From positions 1-64,000 of the forward strand of contig NZ_JAQMUB010000058.1 of assembly GCF_028330965.1 (NCBI RefSeq): DNA of 64,000 bases. Direction: 5' to 3'. Below, in pieces: positions 56,757-64,000 of this stretch. Position numbers and translations under genes: made by a program. How positions within the stretch are numbered: the first letter of the stretch is position 1; each line of letters starts with the position of its first letter. The notes below the pieces were generated by a model. It saw only the letters and a program-made list of their open reading frames with translations. It was not told the origin of the DNA and searched no databases. Source of the DNA: Oscillatoria sp. CS-180 (GTDB lineage: Bacteria; Cyanobacteriota; Cyanobacteriia; Phormidesmidales; Phormidesmidaceae).

Positions 56757-57087
56757 AATCGAAGTGTGGGCACCACTCCACTTTTAGTACTGTTAATTGC
56801 TGCCCCGGGATCACAATCCCTGCTTGGGGATCACGACTGGGGATCAAAAAACTAACGGGGTGTGTAGTCCCGTCTCCACATCTTTTCGCATGTCAAGTAG
56901 AATACAAAATATCGCTAGAACTGTAGGGAATCATCAATCACCCGGGCACATTGAGACCTATCAATTCGCCATTCTGTAAACAAATGTTTACAATGTCGGG
57001 TGAGGCGTACGAGTGAAAGTCCATGGGCTGTTTTGTAGCTCGTACTTCTATGATGGTTAGCATCGTTCTGCGAATTATAGATCTGGG
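56757..57087. other. Intergenic region with short inverted repeat
   Basis: About 330 bases. GGGATCA occurs three times between 56808 and 56845 (short direct repeats). A 7-bp inverted pair GTACGAG (about 57008-57014) / CTCGTAC (about 57039-57045) could form a stem before the DUF502 gene. No coding sequence is convincing. Confidence 0.35.
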
Positions 57088-57822
57088 TTGCCTGTGCTTC
57101 AGAAACTTCGACAGGATTTAAAGAACGACCTCATTGCGGGTTTGTTGGTGGTGATCCCTTTGGCTACGACCATTTGGCTCTCTACTACAGTCGCGATTTG
57201 GGTGATTCGGTTTTTGACCCGATTTCCTAAGCAGCTCAATCCTTTTACGGGGCTGCCGCCTCTGCTAGGTGACATAATTAATCTAGCGGTTGGGTTTGCA
57301 GTGCCCCTGCTGAGTATTCTGCTCATTGGGCTGATGGCTCGTAACATTGCTGGCCGTTGGCTATTGGATCTGGGTGAACGGATTGTGCAGTCAATCCCTT
57401 TAGCAGGCTCAGTGTATAAAACGCTCCAGCAGCTGCTTCAGACTGTTTTTCAAGATTCGAAAAGTCGTTTTCGGCGGGTCATTCTAGTGGAATATCCGCG
57501 TCGAGGACTGTGGGCGGTTGCTTTTGTAACAGGGACGGTTGTTACCTCTGAACCGAAGGCTTCTACTGCTTCGATGCTCAGCGTCTTTATTCCAACAACG
57601 CCTAATCCTACGAGCGGTTGGTATGCGGTTGTGCCTGAAACCGACGTTATCAATCTCTCGATTTCGATTGAAGATGCGTTCAAGATTTTGCTGTCCGGCG
57701 GCATTGTGGGACCTAATTTAGCGGAGTCCATTCCTCAGGAGCGGCTTCTGAGCAGTGGAGCTGTTCAAGAAAACAGCGTGAATCGTCCCATCCTCAACCT
57801 CAACCAGCCTGTGTTGGAATAG
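57088..57822 (+). CDS. DUF502 membrane protein
   Basis: A 244-residue protein of the DUF502 family, found in bacteria and plants (LCV-like). Two N-terminal transmembrane helices (LIAGLLVVIPLATTIWLST; LAVGFAVPLLSILLIGLMA) precede a conserved soluble domain with SIPLAGSVYKTLQQLL, FRRVILVEYPRRGLWAVAFV and FIPTTPNPTSGWYAVVP. The molecular function is not established to my knowledge. The start is TTG 57088, or GTG 57094. Confidence 0.85.
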   Translation: MPVLQKLRQDLKNDLIAGLLVVIPLATTIWLSTTVAIWVIRFLTRFPKQLNPFTGLPPLLGDIINLAVGFAVPLLSILLIGLMARNIAGRWLLDLGERIVQSIPLAGSVYKTLQQLLQTVFQDSKSRFRRVILVEYPRRGLWAVAFVTGTVVTSEPKASTASMLSVFIPTTPNPTSGWYAVVPETDVINLSISIEDAFKILLSGGIVGPNLAESIPQERLLSSGAVQENSVNRPILNLNQPVLE

Positions 57823-57901
57823 CGGACCGACCTTCTTAATCCAACATTCCTAAACTTAGATCCTGTAGTTCAGTTTACGCTGAGCGCTTCGATCTCAGAA
57901 T

Positions 57902-57997
57902 CCCCCGAAATTTGAGGGGTTTTGAGATCAGAGTCCCCCAAATTTGGGGGATTTAAGGGGGCGAATGCAGGGATAATGCTCCAGGGCAAGATCTGAG
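57902..57997 (+). repeat. Dispersed C/G-run hairpin repeat, copy 2
   Basis: CCCCCGAAATTTGAGGGG, then GTCCCCCAAATTTGGGGGAT, then TTAAGGGGGCGAATGCAGG, ending GGGCAAGATCTGAG. It follows 2681-2776 block by block in the same orientation. It lies between the convergent DUF502 and tail-cluster genes. Confidence 0.75.
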
Positions 57998-58053
57998 TTA
58001 AAAGCATGGTGGTCCCCTAATTCATCTCTTCAGAAGTCATAGCCACGATCTCG

Positions 58054-61000
58054 CTATGTCGGCTGGGAAGCTTCTCTGATTCGCTGCATTCTCGTGTTGA
58101 TTCGTTCAACACCTTGCCGGTTTCCCTGGCGCTGAAAGATTTCGACTGCTTGTGAAAGATCGGACAGCGCCCCGTCACGATCGCCCACCTCTGCTCTACT
58201 CAGTCCGCGACGATAGTAGGCTTGGCCTACGGTGGGAACAGCTTCAATAAATTGGTTGTAGTGGGCGATCGCCTCAGTGTGTTGCTCTAATTTGCCGTAA
58301 GCATCTCCCAACAGCAAATAAGCCAGAACCGTAGTCTCTTGCGCCTCTTCACGAGCAATCACTCCTTCATAAACAGCAATAGCGGCTTGATAGTCTTGAG
58401 CAAGGGTAAGCCGATAGCCTTCCTGTAGCGCTGTTTGAGCCGCTCGGGGAGCACTAGCAATAAAGGCGGCGAGACCAGACGGAAGTTCTGATGAAGGAGG
58501 TGGTGAGGAAGCCGATCCGTTCCTCACGTTGCGATCGCTTCGGGCAGAAAGCGGATTTGGGATAGCCGATCCGTCAGTAGATAAGTCTTGGGTCAGGGGT
58601 TGAACCCGTCTCAGGCTTGATCCAGGTTGGCGGAGTATGACTGGAGTGCTGGCGAAAGGCGAACTAGGTGTGCTGCGTGTACGAACTACCGCATCTCTTG
58701 AAACCCCCACTCTGGCTGTGGACAAGCTTGGATTCGGCGAGGAGTTTGCTGTAGGAATCGGTGGTAGTAACGGCGTAGCGGCGGGGAGGTCGTATTCGAC
58801 TTGCAGATCGGACACTACAAGATCGCCGGGTGCATCGCTGAGGAAGACGAGTGGAACGTCCAGAGTGTCTGCTTGAGTGAAAGAGATGGCAGTCACCTGC
58901 AGGGAGTCTGAATAGGGCTGAACAACGCGGATTTCAGCTTGGGTGGCATCCAATGGAGAACGTCCCGACCAGTTGAGTCCGGGAAATCCAGGATCATCTA
59001 AAGGCAGAACGATAGGCGAGGAGGCACCGTTCCAGATGATTTCTAGGCGCGATCGCTTTATCAGAGGCAATTCCTGGCTGTCTGGCGAGAGCGGCGCGGC
59101 AAATTGAGCCTGTACTTTCAGGCTGTAGTCTGTATCTGGCAGGACTTCAACGGTCTGAGATAGCACGGCGTCCCCTGCGTCATCACCGCGCAGTTCTACA
59201 ACCGCATTGTTTACACTGACACCGCCCAAGGTTTCCCAATTGGCGAGTTCACCGTCTGAATTCAGCAAGAAGCGAGCGTTGCTGAGGGTCTCGGTCGTCG
59301 GCGTGAGGGCTACTGAGTCTAGAATGAGGCCGCCTGGCAGTTCTTGCTCGAAGCGAACTTCCACGGCGATCGCGCCCACGGGCGCATGAAGACTCACTTC
59401 ATAGAACCGAAACCCAACCTGTTCGTCTTGTGACCCACCGCCTTCACCGCCTTCACCGCCTTCACCCCCCTCGCCACTGTCATCAGAGTCCACGATGATA
59501 GGTTGAACCGGAGTCAGGAAGGCTTCATCCATGCGAAGCGTTCCATCGTTTTCATCTCGCCAGATTACTTTCCAGGTAAAGCCCCTCATTGGCGGAGAAA
59601 AATCAAGCAGAGGGCTATCTGGCAAAGAACCATAATTGAATTGAAAACGATATGTGCAGCCTGCCCGACAGGCCACTTGCTGCCACAGGCTCAGGCTTAG
59701 GGCTGAATTGTCTGCGGCAGGGGGAATGGGCGGAAAGCAGGGTAGGTCAATTTCATTGTCAGTCCAATAGCTGGGATGCATGAGGAGCACGGCAAAGCGA
59801 ACCCTGTCTGCTGCATCGCGCCATCTGAGCCGCAGCGTTTGACCATCTATCCCTTGCCACCCTTCAGGAACGACCGTGCTGCACCAGGTATGGATGTGGA
59901 GGTTCTCAATGGCAAAATCCTCACCTTCCAGATCCCAGTTACTGCCGCCAAAATTGGACAGTCTGGCGATGTTTCGTCCTACGGCTGAGTTAATCGCGTT
60001 AATAATATCGTCTACTCCGGTTTGAGCGGGATTTGCTCCAGCGCAATCAATCCTAATGAGCCGATTTGGCGTGGGCGTTTGCTGCTCAAGGGAGAGGGTA
60101 ATGTAGCGCTCCGTACTGAGATCAATGCGGTTAATTCGCCGGGTGAAGCTGGCTGACGAGGTAAAGCCATAATGGCCGAGTTCTAGGGGAGCCGATTCGA
60201 GGGCTAAGCGATCAAAAAAGGTGGATTGAAAGCCAAAATCTTCGTCTTGATCGCGCAATTCAAAGAGCCGATGAGTTGCGTCGTCACTGGCAGGAAAACG
60301 GAAGTCGCCGTTGACCAGCAGGGTTTCGCGCCCGCACCCTTCAACGGTCTCAGCTTGACTCAAATGCTCCCCTAGCGTCTCTTCAAAGTCAAACTGGAAT
60401 TCGACACGACCCAAGGGCGCAAATTCATCTAACCGTCGTCGAATCGCGGTTGGCCCTGCCCCGATTTGCAGCTGAACGGGCATCGTGAACTGCTCTGGCT
60501 GATTCCGCAGGCGAAACAGGGCACTGAGGGGCTGGGGTTCTCCGGGAACAGTGGCGACGCGCCAAGCGGTACCTTCGCGGATACTGCACTGTAAGCCAGG
60601 TTCAGGACCAATGCCGGGTTCTACCTGCCAGCTCGCCTCACCCAGTTGACTTTGCAGCACGAGCCAATAGCGCCGGGGAGAGCCGTCATCGAAGGGGGCG
60701 ATTCGCAAGGGGTTTGTCAGCGTGGCACTGCCCCAACTGGCTTGCTCTGGGGGAACGGGTTTACCCACCACCACTTCAGCCGTTTTAAGGATTTCTCCCG
60801 AGGGTTTGCCGTCCGCATCCGACTGAAACGAGATGTGGATACCCGCCTGATTCGCGATCGCCTTCGAAAACAATACATCGACTGCTGTTACAGCAATCTC
60901 GCGATCAATCCAAACGGGCTGGGCCAAGGAGCACTCTGGAGAAACCGTGACAGGGACCGTTGGCGGCAGCGTTCCCACGGGGCCTAAGGCAATGCGGGTC

Positions 61001-61863
61001 GGTTTGAACTGGCCCTGAATGCGGGCCGTGGCCGCACGGGGCATTGCGCCTGTGGGAAGGGAGAGCCGTAACAGTGACTCAGACGCAGCAGGTATAGTGC
61101 CAAAGGTGAAGGGGAGCGTGGCTTCAGGCAGGTGGGGCGGCAGGACTTGCTGAGAAAGGGTGTAGGTGATGCGAATGCGGATATCCAGTCGGGCGATCGC
61201 ATCGGAGTGAATCACCAATGGAATAGTGTAGAAGCCATTCTCTGGGGTCGCCGTACTGAGATAGCTGTTGAGCACTGCGGCAAAGTCCGTGGTGGAGACT
61301 TCGGCGGTGAGTTCCCCAAGCTGTGTCCAAAAAGCGGGCAAATTACCCAAACGCAGACTCAAATTGGTCGGAAGCGACTGGATCGTGACTGAAGTAATGT
61401 TGGGATTTCCCTGGGGCTGCGAGAGTGAAAACTGCTGGACGACGAGGCCCGGTACCGGATGCGTTTCGCCCCCCAGAAAGAAGGTGGGATCGTCGGGTGA
61501 TTTGATGGCATAGCGACTGTTCAACTCTACAAAGGAGCCGCCAATGTCAATTTGTAAGGTAGCGTCGTCAAGGTCATTGTTGGTTTGAAACTCTATAAGC
61601 TTGCGGCGACTATGAAAGTTAACGGCAACAAAGTCAGTTCCACCATCGGTCTTTGTTGCAATCTGGCGATCGCTCCCCTCTAACCGTCCCTCGTTTCCTT
61701 CAAAGGTGATGGTTTCTGCAAAAAGCGTTTCTCCAGCCGTCACGGGTGTCAGGGTGATGATGGCCTTTTGAACTTTGGCTCCAGCGGGTAAGGTCCGGAG
61801 AGACAGGGTTCTATCGCCCTCAAAAGGGGTATTGGCTCCAGGATAGCGATCGTCTAGCAGCAT
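58054..61863 (-). CDS. Giant beta-rich tail-cluster protein with C-terminal TPRs
   Basis: A 1269-residue protein I cannot place in a named family. Most of it is beta-rich and reads like serial carbohydrate-binding or tail-tip modules, for example LLVNGDFRFPASDD near residue 512 and ARFLLNSDGELANWETLGG near 870. A glycine-rich linker with (GEG)n repeats lies near 790-808. Residues about 1140-1255 are TPR repeats (AIAVYEGVIAREEAQ, YLLLGDAYGKLEQHTEAIAH, AYYRRGLSRAEVGDRDGALS). No signal peptide. It starts at ATG 61863; a stop lies 20 codons upstream in frame. Context (tail-fibre-like and sheath-like genes upstream) suggests a role in a tail-like particle; that is inference. Confidence 0.6.
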   Translation of the reverse strand: MLLDDRYPGANTPFEGDRTLSLRTLPAGAKVQKAIITLTPVTAGETLFAETITFEGNEGRLEGSDRQIATKTDGGTDFVAVNFHSRRKLIEFQTNNDLDDATLQIDIGGSFVELNSRYAIKSPDDPTFFLGGETHPVPGLVVQQFSLSQPQGNPNITSVTIQSLPTNLSLRLGNLPAFWTQLGELTAEVSTTDFAAVLNSYLSTATPENGFYTIPLVIHSDAIARLDIRIRITYTLSQQVLPPHLPEATLPFTFGTIPAASESLLRLSLPTGAMPRAATARIQGQFKPTRIALGPVGTLPPTVPVTVSPECSLAQPVWIDREIAVTAVDVLFSKAIANQAGIHISFQSDADGKPSGEILKTAEVVVGKPVPPEQASWGSATLTNPLRIAPFDDGSPRRYWLVLQSQLGEASWQVEPGIGPEPGLQCSIREGTAWRVATVPGEPQPLSALFRLRNQPEQFTMPVQLQIGAGPTAIRRRLDEFAPLGRVEFQFDFEETLGEHLSQAETVEGCGRETLLVNGDFRFPASDDATHRLFELRDQDEDFGFQSTFFDRLALESAPLELGHYGFTSSASFTRRINRIDLSTERYITLSLEQQTPTPNRLIRIDCAGANPAQTGVDDIINAINSAVGRNIARLSNFGGSNWDLEGEDFAIENLHIHTWCSTVVPEGWQGIDGQTLRLRWRDAADRVRFAVLLMHPSYWTDNEIDLPCFPPIPPAADNSALSLSLWQQVACRAGCTYRFQFNYGSLPDSPLLDFSPPMRGFTWKVIWRDENDGTLRMDEAFLTPVQPIIVDSDDSGEGGEGGEGGEGGGSQDEQVGFRFYEVSLHAPVGAIAVEVRFEQELPGGLILDSVALTPTTETLSNARFLLNSDGELANWETLGGVSVNNAVVELRGDDAGDAVLSQTVEVLPDTDYSLKVQAQFAAPLSPDSQELPLIKRSRLEIIWNGASSPIVLPLDDPGFPGLNWSGRSPLDATQAEIRVVQPYSDSLQVTAISFTQADTLDVPLVFLSDAPGDLVVSDLQVEYDLPAATPLLPPIPTANSSPNPSLSTARVGVSRDAVVRTRSTPSSPFASTPVILRQPGSSLRRVQPLTQDLSTDGSAIPNPLSARSDRNVRNGSASSPPPSSELPSGLAAFIASAPRAAQTALQEGYRLTLAQDYQAAIAVYEGVIAREEAQETTVLAYLLLGDAYGKLEQHTEAIAHYNQFIEAVPTVGQAYYRRGLSRAEVGDRDGALSDLSQAVEIFQRQGNRQGVERINTRMQRIREASQPT

Positions 61864-62082
61864 GATGTTGGCCTCGACCTGAGGGCAATTTTGGATTGGC
61901 GATTTTGGATTGAGGAATATTCATTAGGTAGGGTGGGCACTGCCCACCACACCAATGGTGCATGAGCAGAATTGTTCCTAGACTTCCGAAAGTCAATAAC
62001 CCAGGCAGTGCCACCCATGCAAAAGATAGAGGAATGAAGGCAGAATTTAATTCCATTTGCCTTCATTCCTTAGCCCCAAAAG

Positions 62083-63027
62083 CTAGGTTCGCAGAACGAC
62101 CATAAGGTCGATTTTGTTTTGAGCGCGAATTTCTAACAGATTTTGGCTTAAATGAAAGACCTGAACGGTGTTAGGAACTGGGGCATTGTCGGCTCGTTCA
62201 GACGAGTCAAATGAAATATTGGTCGGGATCATCTGGGGGCGAATGGCTAAGCGCAGATCAGGCCAAACACCGCCATCCTTCAACTCTTTCACCGTGCGGC
62301 TGTTGCCTAAGAGCTGATCTTGAACGTATTTGGTATGTCCGTAGGAATTGCGGCGGAAGTGGTCTTGCTCTAGTCCTGGGTCAAATATTTTGCCCCACAG
62401 GTCATTCAGGACATCATCGAAATACTGAGTATCCGTCACCTGCAGGCCAAACTGATCCAGGATGTCTTGAATTGGGTCGCCCCAGTGCAGTGCATCGGTA
62501 CCGGCACGGGTCATCAACCTTGCGGCATCCGGGTCACGGTGCCCTGCGTAGTAGACCAGAAATTTGACGGGAATCTTATCGGCGTCCCTTACAACCTCGG
62601 TCTCGTTGGGATCTCCACCACCGCGCAGTTCTGCTAATTCACCGCGCAGTTCGGCTAGTTCAAACAGGCTGACGACGGGATAGCGACCCAGGTTGTGTTC
62701 AATCAGTGCCGGCAAGGGCGTACCGGAAGGTAAGGCCAACTGCTTGAAATAGCGGCGGTATTGACCCAGGCTGCCTTCTAGGTCAGCTTTCAGCACGTAG
62801 CGTTCATCATAGTAAGCCTTCCATTCGTCTGGCGTTTGACCTCCGAACGTGTCGGCATCCACAGGCTGCTCTTTGAACTCATCCAAATCGTCTTGAACGG
62901 TTTCCACCTTGGCATGAATGTCTTCTTTGATGGCGACCTGCATGGCGTTCAGACGCTCGGCGGCGATCAGTTCACCGGGGTTGAACGTATCGTAAGGGGT
63001 TGTGTCAGTCTGCATGTTGGCTTGCAT
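62083..63027 (-). CDS. Tail-fibre-like protein
   Basis: A 314-residue protein. The start (FNPGELIAAERLNAMQVAIK) and the coiled region EDIHAKVETVQDDLDEF resemble the entry modules of phage tail-fibre or tail-associated proteins, where a pG..i.A..lN.lQ pattern recurs. A middle segment VEHNLGRYPVV-like (IEHNLGRYPVVSLFELAE) and a beta-rich C-terminus follow. ATG 63027 has a strong ribosome site (AAAAGGAGA). It lies 45 bases downstream of the partial gene and 219 before the giant protein, on one strand. Family membership is by pattern only. Confidence 0.55.
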   Translation of the reverse strand: MQANMQTDTTPYDTFNPGELIAAERLNAMQVAIKEDIHAKVETVQDDLDEFKEQPVDADTFGGQTPDEWKAYYDERYVLKADLEGSLGQYRRYFKQLALPSGTPLPALIEHNLGRYPVVSLFELAELRGELAELRGGGDPNETEVVRDADKIPVKFLVYYAGHRDPDAARLMTRAGTDALHWGDPIQDILDQFGLQVTDTQYFDDVLNDLWGKIFDPGLEQDHFRRNSYGHTKYVQDQLLGNSRTVKELKDGGVWPDLRLAIRPQMIPTNISFDSSERADNAPVPNTVQVFHLSQNLLEIRAQNKIDLMVVLRT

Positions 63028-63072
63028 AGGAATCTCCTTTTAAGTGAACTTTGAACTTCGGATGTCGAAACG

Positions 63073-64000
63073 TTAGGGATGACAGGTATCGCGAGTGACG
63101 GTGGCTTTGACACCAGCGGCTTTGGCTTGCAAAATACCGATGGGGCTGGGTTCGAGCAGATCCTGAGTCGAAGCCGGGAGAGGATTGCCGAGAACCACCT
63201 GACGAGCATTTTCGAAACGGCTGGCTTGGTAGGCGATCGCCACCTCATACATCCCCTGACCAGCGGGACGAGCGGAGACGGCAATCTCGTTGCCCCAGAC
63301 GCCTACAGCCTTGGCCTCTAACAGAACAAATTGATTGGCGACGTCAGGATCTTTGAGATAAATACGAGCGGCTGCGTCACGGCTGCCCAATGTCAGCACC
63401 TGAGGTCGTCGGAAGGGCACTTCCACCGCAGCCCATCCCAAGGGCACGCGGTCTACGATTTGAGCTTTGACGATGGTGGATTGCTGAGTCCCCTGGTTGA
63501 CTCGCGGCACTAAGCTATGAGCAGCATCGAAATTGGTGTTGCCCGTCGTTTCCAGAACTGCATCGGAATACCGTTCTGGCTGTCCGACACTTTGGCTAAA
63601 GCGGGCTTCGTTGAAGCGCCCGCCAAAGCGCGGTGGCAGATCGGCAGGAAGATGCACCTCGAAGCTGCCGGGTTGATGGCTGAGCCAGGAAAAATGGACG
63701 AGAACGGGCGGCTCAACACTGATTTCTCCAGTGAAGACGGCCTCCACCAACTCGGGTGGCTCGTGGACAAACCGACTGACGTTGAAGATGCCGCGCTCTC
63801 GACAGCGATCGCCCGCAAAGTACGCTTGATTGAAATCGGCTTGATTGAATCGACTGCTGTAGCAGTCCAAATATTGCCAGTGAGACGGACCCAGGGGTAA
63901 CCGTAACCCGCCCGATTTTGGCAGTAACTCCGCCGTTAGCCGCTGGGAACGTGCATTAACCTGCTGGCTGAGTGACTGTTCATCGTCTGCGCCGATGGTC
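63073..64000 (-). CDS. Tail sheath/baseplate-like protein (N-terminus outside window)
   Basis: The frame is open from the stop at 63073 to the window edge, so the gene continues beyond 64000; the first in-frame start codons here are internal. Visible motifs include short repeats FNQADFNQAYF and GRFNEARF. The C-terminal GVWGNEIAVSARPAGQGMYE followed by ARQVVLG has the GxWGN pattern seen in the beta-sandwich of phage tail sheath proteins. It is close upstream of the tail-fibre-like gene in the same direction. A component of a prophage tail or contractile injection system is plausible; a definite name needs the missing part. Confidence 0.5.
   Translation of the reverse strand, partial: TIGADDEQSLSQQVNARSQRLTAELLPKSGGLRLPLGPSHWQYLDCYSSRFNQADFNQAYFAGDRCRERGIFNVSRFVHEPPELVEAVFTGEISVEPPVLVHFSWLSHQPGSFEVHLPADLPPRFGGRFNEARFSQSVGQPERYSDAVLETTGNTNFDAAHSLVPRVNQGTQQSTIVKAQIVDRVPLGWAAVEVPFRRPQVLTLGSRDAAARIYLKDPDVANQFVLLEAKAVGVWGNEIAVSARPAGQGMYEVAIAYQASRFENARQVVLGNPLPASTQDLLEPSPIGILQAKAAGVKATVTRDTCHP

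What the first reader, a model, noticed from the sequence alone, without database searches (positions are those of the whole stretch)
58054..64000. Edge of a possible tail-like particle or contractile injection system locus
Three co-directional genes look, in turn, like a sheath/baseplate-type protein, a fibre-type protein and a giant beta-rich protein ending in TPRs. Cyanobacteria are known to carry thylakoid-anchored contractile injection systems, so the rest of such a cluster may lie just past 64000. A tail protein with C-terminal TPRs is unusual.
Basis: partly seen in the sequence, partly recalled or inferred. Interest (0 to 1): 0.65.

Follow-up and report, generated by a model that had tools for sequence, protein, structure and literature searches.

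The report
Headless contractile tail island with enzyme slot
The three genes are the tail end of a 27-kb island that encodes a phage-tail-like spring-loaded syringe without any virus head; the island was inserted into this cyanobacterium, has close copies in four bacterial phyla, and carries a swappable enzyme gene (here a tyrosinase), which hints at what the device delivers or displays.

Summary
Beyond 64000, on the same contig, lie sheath, putative tube, tail chaperone, baseplate adaptors, hub, spike, gp25, gpJ and a 1650-aa gpI-like protein whose last 308 aa are the window's first gene. With the 314-aa and 1269-aa genes they form a 17-gene island (C98:58054-85122). The genome has no terminase or portal match. 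The island lies between a DUF502 gene and glgA, which are nearly adjacent in four congeners.

It belongs to a well-supported clade of ten loci in Cyanobacteria, Acidobacteria, Chloroflexi and Proteobacteria with invariant gene order. It is not the thylakoid-type CIS suggested: it lacks the Cis15 AAA+ ATPase, and the genome has a separate ATPase-bearing CIS. Clade features: a baseplate adaptor tied to a peptidoglycan-binding OmpA domain, a 130-aa protein where sister lineages have a ~1100-aa tape measure, the 1269-aa protein, and a variable enzyme slot (tyrosinase here; phospholipase D, alpha/beta hydrolase or a metalloprotease motif elsewhere). The C-terminal TPRs are not conserved. Best reading: a contractile device that presents or injects the slot enzyme; function is inferred, not shown. 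New variant of a known kind.

The parts
58054..61863 (-). 1269-aa clade-specific putative arm or receptor-binding protein, last gene of the island
   Evidence: Orthologues in all nine other members of the clade, beyond the TPR part; genomes of other lineages match only in the TPR part; same last position in the complete islands
61159..61863 (-). Residues 1-235 of the 1269-aa protein: beta-sandwich region
   Evidence: Model pLDDT mostly 73-93; resembles sugar-binding domains of beta-glucuronidases (Z up to 8.8) and, for residues 49-162, discoidin domains; a common fold, so function is not shown
60547..60993 (-). Residues 291-439: jelly-roll-like domain
   Evidence: Best match is a phi812 contractile-phage baseplate chain, Z 9.9, rmsd 3.9, 127 residues aligned; unrelated folds reach Z about 8
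59959..60129 (-). Residues 579-635: one copy of the beta-repeat that occurs eight times in the 1650-aa protein
   Evidence: Repeat profile, domain E 4e-12
58138..58410 (-). C-terminal TPRs (residues 1152-1242), not conserved in homologues
   Evidence: Pfam TPR models; absent in the Myxacorys homologue, HHH_5 in four others
62083..63027 (-). 314-aa fibre-type protein with N-terminal coil
   Evidence: Conserved in 8 loci, 24-57% identity, always between the 1650-aa and 1269-aa genes; no family match; model poor
63073..64000 (-). C-terminal 308 aa of a 1650-aa gpI-like baseplate protein with eight internal repeats (full gene C98:63073-68025)
57823..58053 (.). Left junction of the island, next to the conserved DUF502 gene 57088-57822
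   Evidence: DUF502 and glgA lie 152-221 bp apart in four congeners; here 27.6 kb apart

Best explanation
The finding is the 3' end of a horizontally acquired 17-gene island for a headless contractile tail-like device of a distinct lineage, with Mu/PBSX-like gene order, without phage head genes and without the CIS ATPase. Shown: gene order, conservation across phyla, insertion at a site that is nearly empty in congeners, and no terminase or portal match in the genome. Inferred: sheath and tube assemble on a baseplate (adaptors, hub, spike, gp25, gpJ, 1650-aa protein). The 314-aa and 1269-aa proteins form external fibres or arms that bind a target, perhaps a glycan. One baseplate adaptor carries an OmpA/peptidoglycan-binding arm that docks on a cell wall. 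On contraction the device breaches the envelope and delivers or presents the enzyme of the variable slot, here a tyrosinase. The short protein in the tape-measure position suggests a very short tail or one whose length is not set by a ruler.
For: Tail families in order: sheath, chaperone, hub, spike, gp25, gpJ. Same gene set and order in ten loci of four phyla, tree support 100/99. DUF502-glgA nearly adjacent in congeners, where the sheath is absent. No terminase or portal in the genome. No Cis15 ATPase in the contig or in related loci. OmpA domain keeps the Asp...Arg spacing in the matched members. Slot enzymes: tyrosinase, phospholipase D, alpha/beta hydrolase, HExxH motif fused to OmpA. The 1269-aa N-terminus has baseplate-like and sugar-binding-like beta domains.
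Against: No particle, expression or activity has been observed. Tube and PAAR-like assignments rest on position only. DNA_circ_N matches are below Pfam's cut-off. The 130-aa protein could not be shown to be homologous to tape measures: reversed sequences score nearly as well. A tyrosinase is found in this locus only, so it could be a passenger. The Uma2/nucleotidyltransferase genes on the other strand split the operon. The fold matches are to common beta-sandwich folds.
Confidence: 0.6

Rival explanations
1. R-type tailocin: a released bacteriocin particle that kills by puncture, with the slot enzymes only helping penetration at the tail tip.
For: Headless contractile tail, no ATPase, phage-like order with tail chaperone; PMC12210884 describes phages and R-type bacteriocins as lacking the ATPase.
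Against: No holin or lysin matched among the island proteins searched; R-tailocin clusters encode them (PMC10598620), though that review says some eCIS loci lack the cassette. Diverse hydrolases and an oxidase at one fixed slot fit a cargo better.
Confidence: 0.22
2. Cell-anchored device: the OmpA/peptidoglycan-binding arm ties the baseplate to the producer's own wall and the machine fires outward, as in T6SS or thylakoid CIS.
For: OmpA and PG_binding_1 domains in the baseplate adaptor; a TagL peptidoglycan-binding domain anchors T6SS to the cell wall (PMC8253398, title and abstract); T6SS also lacks a tape measure (PMC12210884).
Against: No ATPase; no membrane helix in the 314-aa or 1269-aa protein or in the OmpA adaptor of this species, so it is unclear how a cytoplasmic baseplate would reach the wall; no membrane complex recognised in the island.
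Confidence: 0.12
3. Decaying remnant of a prophage or tail cluster without present function.
For: Tail genes only; two genes inserted on the opposite strand between PAAR and gp25; patchy distribution.
Against: All 17 ORFs are intact (translation check); same gene set and order in distant phyla; no terminase or portal in the genome; phage records hold only three weak partial sheath matches.
Confidence: 0.04
4. One reading: edge of a thylakoid-anchored CIS of the Anabaena type.
For: A cyanobacterial genome with a contractile locus and a fibre-type gene.
Against: No Cis15 ATPase; no membrane helix in the fibre-type protein; a separate ATPase-bearing CIS exists on C84; close relatives are mostly non-photosynthetic bacteria of other phyla.
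Confidence: 0.02

Closest known systems
Contractile tail modules of Mu-like and PBSX-like phages
   Same: Order sheath, tube, chaperone, adaptor, hub, spike, gp25, gpJ, gpI, fibre (order in those phages recalled, not tested here)
   Different: No terminase or portal in the genome; short protein at the tape-measure position; OmpA-linked adaptor; enzyme slot; expanded gpI-like protein; extra 1269-aa protein
Thylakoid-anchored and extracellular CIS (Anabaena tCIS, Afp, PVC)
   Same: Headless contractile sheath-tube-baseplate locus in a cyanobacterium; spike and gp25/gpJ baseplate parts
   Different: No Cis15 AAA+ ATPase; no transmembrane fibre; has a phage-type tail chaperone; tail genes more phage-like. 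The same genome has a separate ATPase-bearing CIS on C84
R-type tailocins
   Same: Headless contractile tail, no ATPase
   Different: No lysis genes matched in the island; variable enzyme genes; short protein in the tape-measure position; one gene order across phyla

Membership tests
eCIS/tCIS (Afp-PVC type) | Contractile sheath with baseplate and spike | tested here: met
   Sheath PF17482 and PHROG 279, spike PF04717, gp25 and gpJ PHROGs; the tube is positional
eCIS/tCIS (Afp-PVC type) | AAA+ ATPase (Cis15) | tested here: not met
   phmmer with the genome's own C84 ATPase finds only itself among ORFs of the contig and of the related loci; role of Cis15 as a separating feature from PMC12210884
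eCIS/tCIS (Afp-PVC type) | Spike plug (PAAR-like) | tested here: inconclusive
   109-aa protein after the spike, no Pfam or NCBIfam match
Thylakoid CIS | Transmembrane domain in the tail fibre | tested here: not met
   Highest 19-residue hydropathy 0.64 (314 aa) and 1.19 (1269 aa); which of them is the fibre is inferred
R-type tailocin | Contractile tail without head or packaging genes | tested here: met
   No Terminase_6N or portal match in the genome; capsid models were not searched genome-wide
R-type tailocin | Long tape-measure protein | tested here: inconclusive
   Only 130 aa at that position; homology to tape measures not established
R-type tailocin | Lysis cassette in the cluster | tested here: not met
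   No holin or lysin match among island proteins in Pfam; feature from PMC10598620
R-type tailocin | Kills related bacteria | not testable with these tools
   Needs a killing assay
Prophage (complete myophage) | Terminase and portal genes | tested here: not met
   None in the whole genome; control genomes gave matches
Tyrosinase (slot gene) | Whole central domain with copper-binding histidine motifs | tested here: met
   PF00264 positions 3-213 of 214, E 4e-45; bacterial tyrosinases in the PDB E about 1e-71; HRGPAFLPWH, HNRGH and FLHH motifs in the sequence

The most novel reading that the evidence does not exclude
A mobile, cross-phylum lineage of contractile devices with ultra-short or ruler-less tails, in which an OmpA-armed baseplate carries interchangeable enzymes (tyrosinase, phospholipase D, alpha/beta hydrolase, metalloprotease) as its payload: a syringe that presents or injects an enzyme at a cell wall without the CIS ATPase.
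Probability: 0.3. Interest if true: 0.8.

Novelty: new variant of a known kind. Interest (0 to 1): 0.6.

Why it matters
It defines a compact, ATPase-less contractile-tail lineage that has moved between cyanobacteria, Acidobacteria, Chloroflexi and Proteobacteria. Its clearly delimited enzyme position makes delivery or display directly testable. The short protein in the tape-measure position bears on how contractile tails set their length, and this host carries a second, ATPase-bearing CIS for comparison.

Tried and rejected
A scan of genome contigs with the 1269-aa protein alone found no relatives; the sheath alignment worked. The thylakoid-CIS reading was rejected on ATPase and membrane-helix tests. 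Prophage rejected. The idea that TPRs are intrinsic to the tail protein was rejected. Homology of the 130-aa protein to long tape measures was tried and not established: forward best 21.1 bits, reversed best 15.9. The 314-aa model was too poor for a fold search (mean pLDDT 54). No solved-structure relative by sequence for the 314-aa protein; the PDB hits of the 1269-aa family alignment are mostly beta-propellers inserted in homologues. No Rfam RNA in 56800-64000. No recombinase or clear terminal repeats at the junctions; longest shared direct repeat 9 bp. Flagellin_IN resemblance of the repeat is below Pfam's cut-off (E 0.026) and was not relied on. Literature searches with tyrosinase/tail sheath terms and with OmpA/baseplate terms found no description of this architecture; the library is open-access only.

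Full report
WHAT IS THERE. The window is bases 1-64000 of a 103,998-base contig, C98. Three minus-strand genes at the right edge continue into a run of minus-strand tail genes up to C98:85122. In transcription order (C98 coordinates; the window ends at 64000): 312 aa of unknown function 84184-85122; sheath 557 aa 82426-84099; putative tube 191 aa 81841-82416; tail assembly chaperone 173 aa 81127-81648; proline-rich 468 aa 79724-81130; adaptor 179 aa 79139-79678; 130 aa 78631-79023; adaptor fused to OmpA and PG_binding_1, 743 aa 76395-78626; tyrosinase 386 aa 74810-75970; hub 359 aa 73712-74791; spike 268 aa 72826-73632; PAAR-like 109 aa 72467-72796; two plus-strand genes (Uma2-like 70262-70873 and nucleotidyltransferase-like 70955-72136, names from reading the sequence, not tested); gp25 159 aa 69661-70140; gpJ-like 542 aa 68036-69664; 1650 aa 63073-68025; 314 aa 62083-63027; 1269 aa 58054-61863.

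FAMILY EVIDENCE. Sheath: PF17482 E 1e-11, PHROG 279 E 3e-49. Chaperone: PF10109 E 1e-6. Hub: PHROG 52 E 1e-13. Spike: PF04717 E 5e-6. gp25: PHROG 975 E 6e-18. gpJ: PHROG 6 E 8e-35. OmpA E 3e-9 and PG_binding_1 E 4e-15, with DNA_circ_N below cut-off. Tyrosinase: PF00264 E 4e-45. The tube and the PAAR-like protein have no family match and rest on position. The Mu/PBSX gene order used for comparison is recalled knowledge.

NOT A PROPHAGE. Terminase_6N and portal searches find nothing in this genome while several control genomes give matches. GenBank phages hold only three weak partial sheath matches. Capsid models were not searched genome-wide.

NOT THE CANONICAL CYANOBACTERIAL CIS. The genome carries a second sheath on contig C84, in a cluster that also reads as tube-like genes, spike, gp25 and an AAA+ ATPase (names there are from sequence reading and from matches of our spike and gp25). 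Searching with that ATPase finds no counterpart in contig C98 or in the related loci fetched. [quoted passage not shown] The anchoring feature of thylakoid CIS, a transmembrane domain in the fibre (PMC8894136), is not seen.

RELATIVES. A sheath profile finds 57 loci in bacterial genomes. The window's copy falls in a clade of ten with 100/99 support, mixing Cyanobacteriota, Acidobacteriota, Chloroflexota and Pseudomonadota. Complete or partial islands in this clade share one order from the 312-aa gene to the 1269-aa gene. The 1269-aa family is found in all nine other members; the other genomes tested match at most in the TPR part. Several members are MAGs, so organism labels are provisional.

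ISLAND INSERTION. In all five congeners the sheath is absent. In four of them the DUF502 gene and glgA are 152-221 bp apart; in the fifth the gap of 2.6 kb holds an 870-aa leucine-rich-repeat ORF. Here about 27.6 kb lies between them. No recombinase or strong terminal repeats were seen. G+C is 54% in the island against 50% to its left and 48% to its right.

CLADE-SPECIFIC ANATOMY. (a) Between the first adaptor and the hub, many loci of other lineages have an 1100-1250-aa helical protein in the tape-measure position; this clade has 130-236 aa. Homology is not established. (b) The second adaptor carries, or is followed by, an OmpA domain; the Asp...Arg pair at the spacing recalled from peptidoglycan-binding OmpA domains is kept in the matched members. 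(c) The gene or domain before the hub varies: tyrosinase here; phospholipase D in Phormidesmis; an alpha/beta hydrolase within 1154 aa in a proteobacterial MAG; an OmpA protein with an HExxH motif in a Leptolyngbyaceae MAG; OmpA-beta-helix-TIG in the acidobacterial Dive96 MAG, with a similar protein in Myxacorys; and an unassigned 342-aa protein in another acidobacterium. (d) The 1650-aa protein is expanded by eight ~113-aa repeats (3-9 in homologues), one copy of which sits in the 1269-aa protein. Its N-terminus matches smaller proteins that follow gpJ in other lineages, and its C-terminus resembles a sheath domain. (e) The 1269-aa protein has sugar-binding-like and phage-baseplate-like beta domains. 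Its mid region holds a beta-propeller in some homologues. Its C-terminus is variable: TPR here, HHH_5, GT2 or a basic tail elsewhere.

MECHANISM. Shown: anatomy, conservation, insertion, absence of ATPase, terminase and portal matches. Inferred: assembly of a contractile particle; target binding by the 314-aa and 1269-aa proteins; docking on peptidoglycan by the OmpA arm; delivery or display of the slot enzyme. In some members the slot domain is fused to OmpA, which favours an enzyme carried on the baseplate over one packed in the tube, but this is not decided.

LIMITS. Only open-access papers were searched, and no description of this architecture was found. Only two structure predictions were possible; one was poor.

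Noticed in passing
window 61928-62016: Short dispersed DNA repeat in the gap between the 314-aa and 1269-aa genes; copies with 80-82% identity on contigs C20, C7 and C75, sharing a GGTGGGCAGTGCCCACC palindrome.
   Followed up: partly
window 62030-62070: Hairpin (inverted repeat GAATGAAGGCA...TGCCTTCATTC) just after the 314-aa gene; could be a terminator or attenuator that separates the 1269-aa gene from the operon.
   Followed up: no
L024/L025 (G000:C84, about 41558-66718): A second contractile locus in the same genome with sheath, tube-like genes, spike, gp25 and an AAA+ ATPase: a better candidate for the eCIS/tCIS type.
   Followed up: partly
C98:70262-72136 (L007:13262-15136): Two plus-strand genes, Uma2-like and nucleotidyltransferase-like, sit between PAAR and gp25; Myxacorys has a glycosyltransferase-like gene at the same place, so this is a second variable position.
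   Followed up: no
L148:1515-4127: In one congener the same DUF502-glgA gap holds an 870-aa leucine-rich-repeat ORF, so the site may accept insertions repeatedly.
   Followed up: no
L083-L086 (IMG/VR contigs): Four contigs filed as viral carry this tail cluster; L084 is nearly identical in sheath to Microcystis chromosomal copies, so some may be bacterial islands misfiled as viruses.
   Followed up: no
L053:6386-9064 and L043:6390: Sister-lineage loci carry a protein of about 900 aa upstream of the sheath; the L053 copy matches zinc-dependent phospholipase C (E 9e-9).
   Followed up: partly
L109:10570-14385: The Chloroflexota homologue of the 1269-aa protein ends in HHH_5 followed by a glycosyltransferase-2 domain in one reading frame; it may be a real fusion or an assembly effect.
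   Followed up: no
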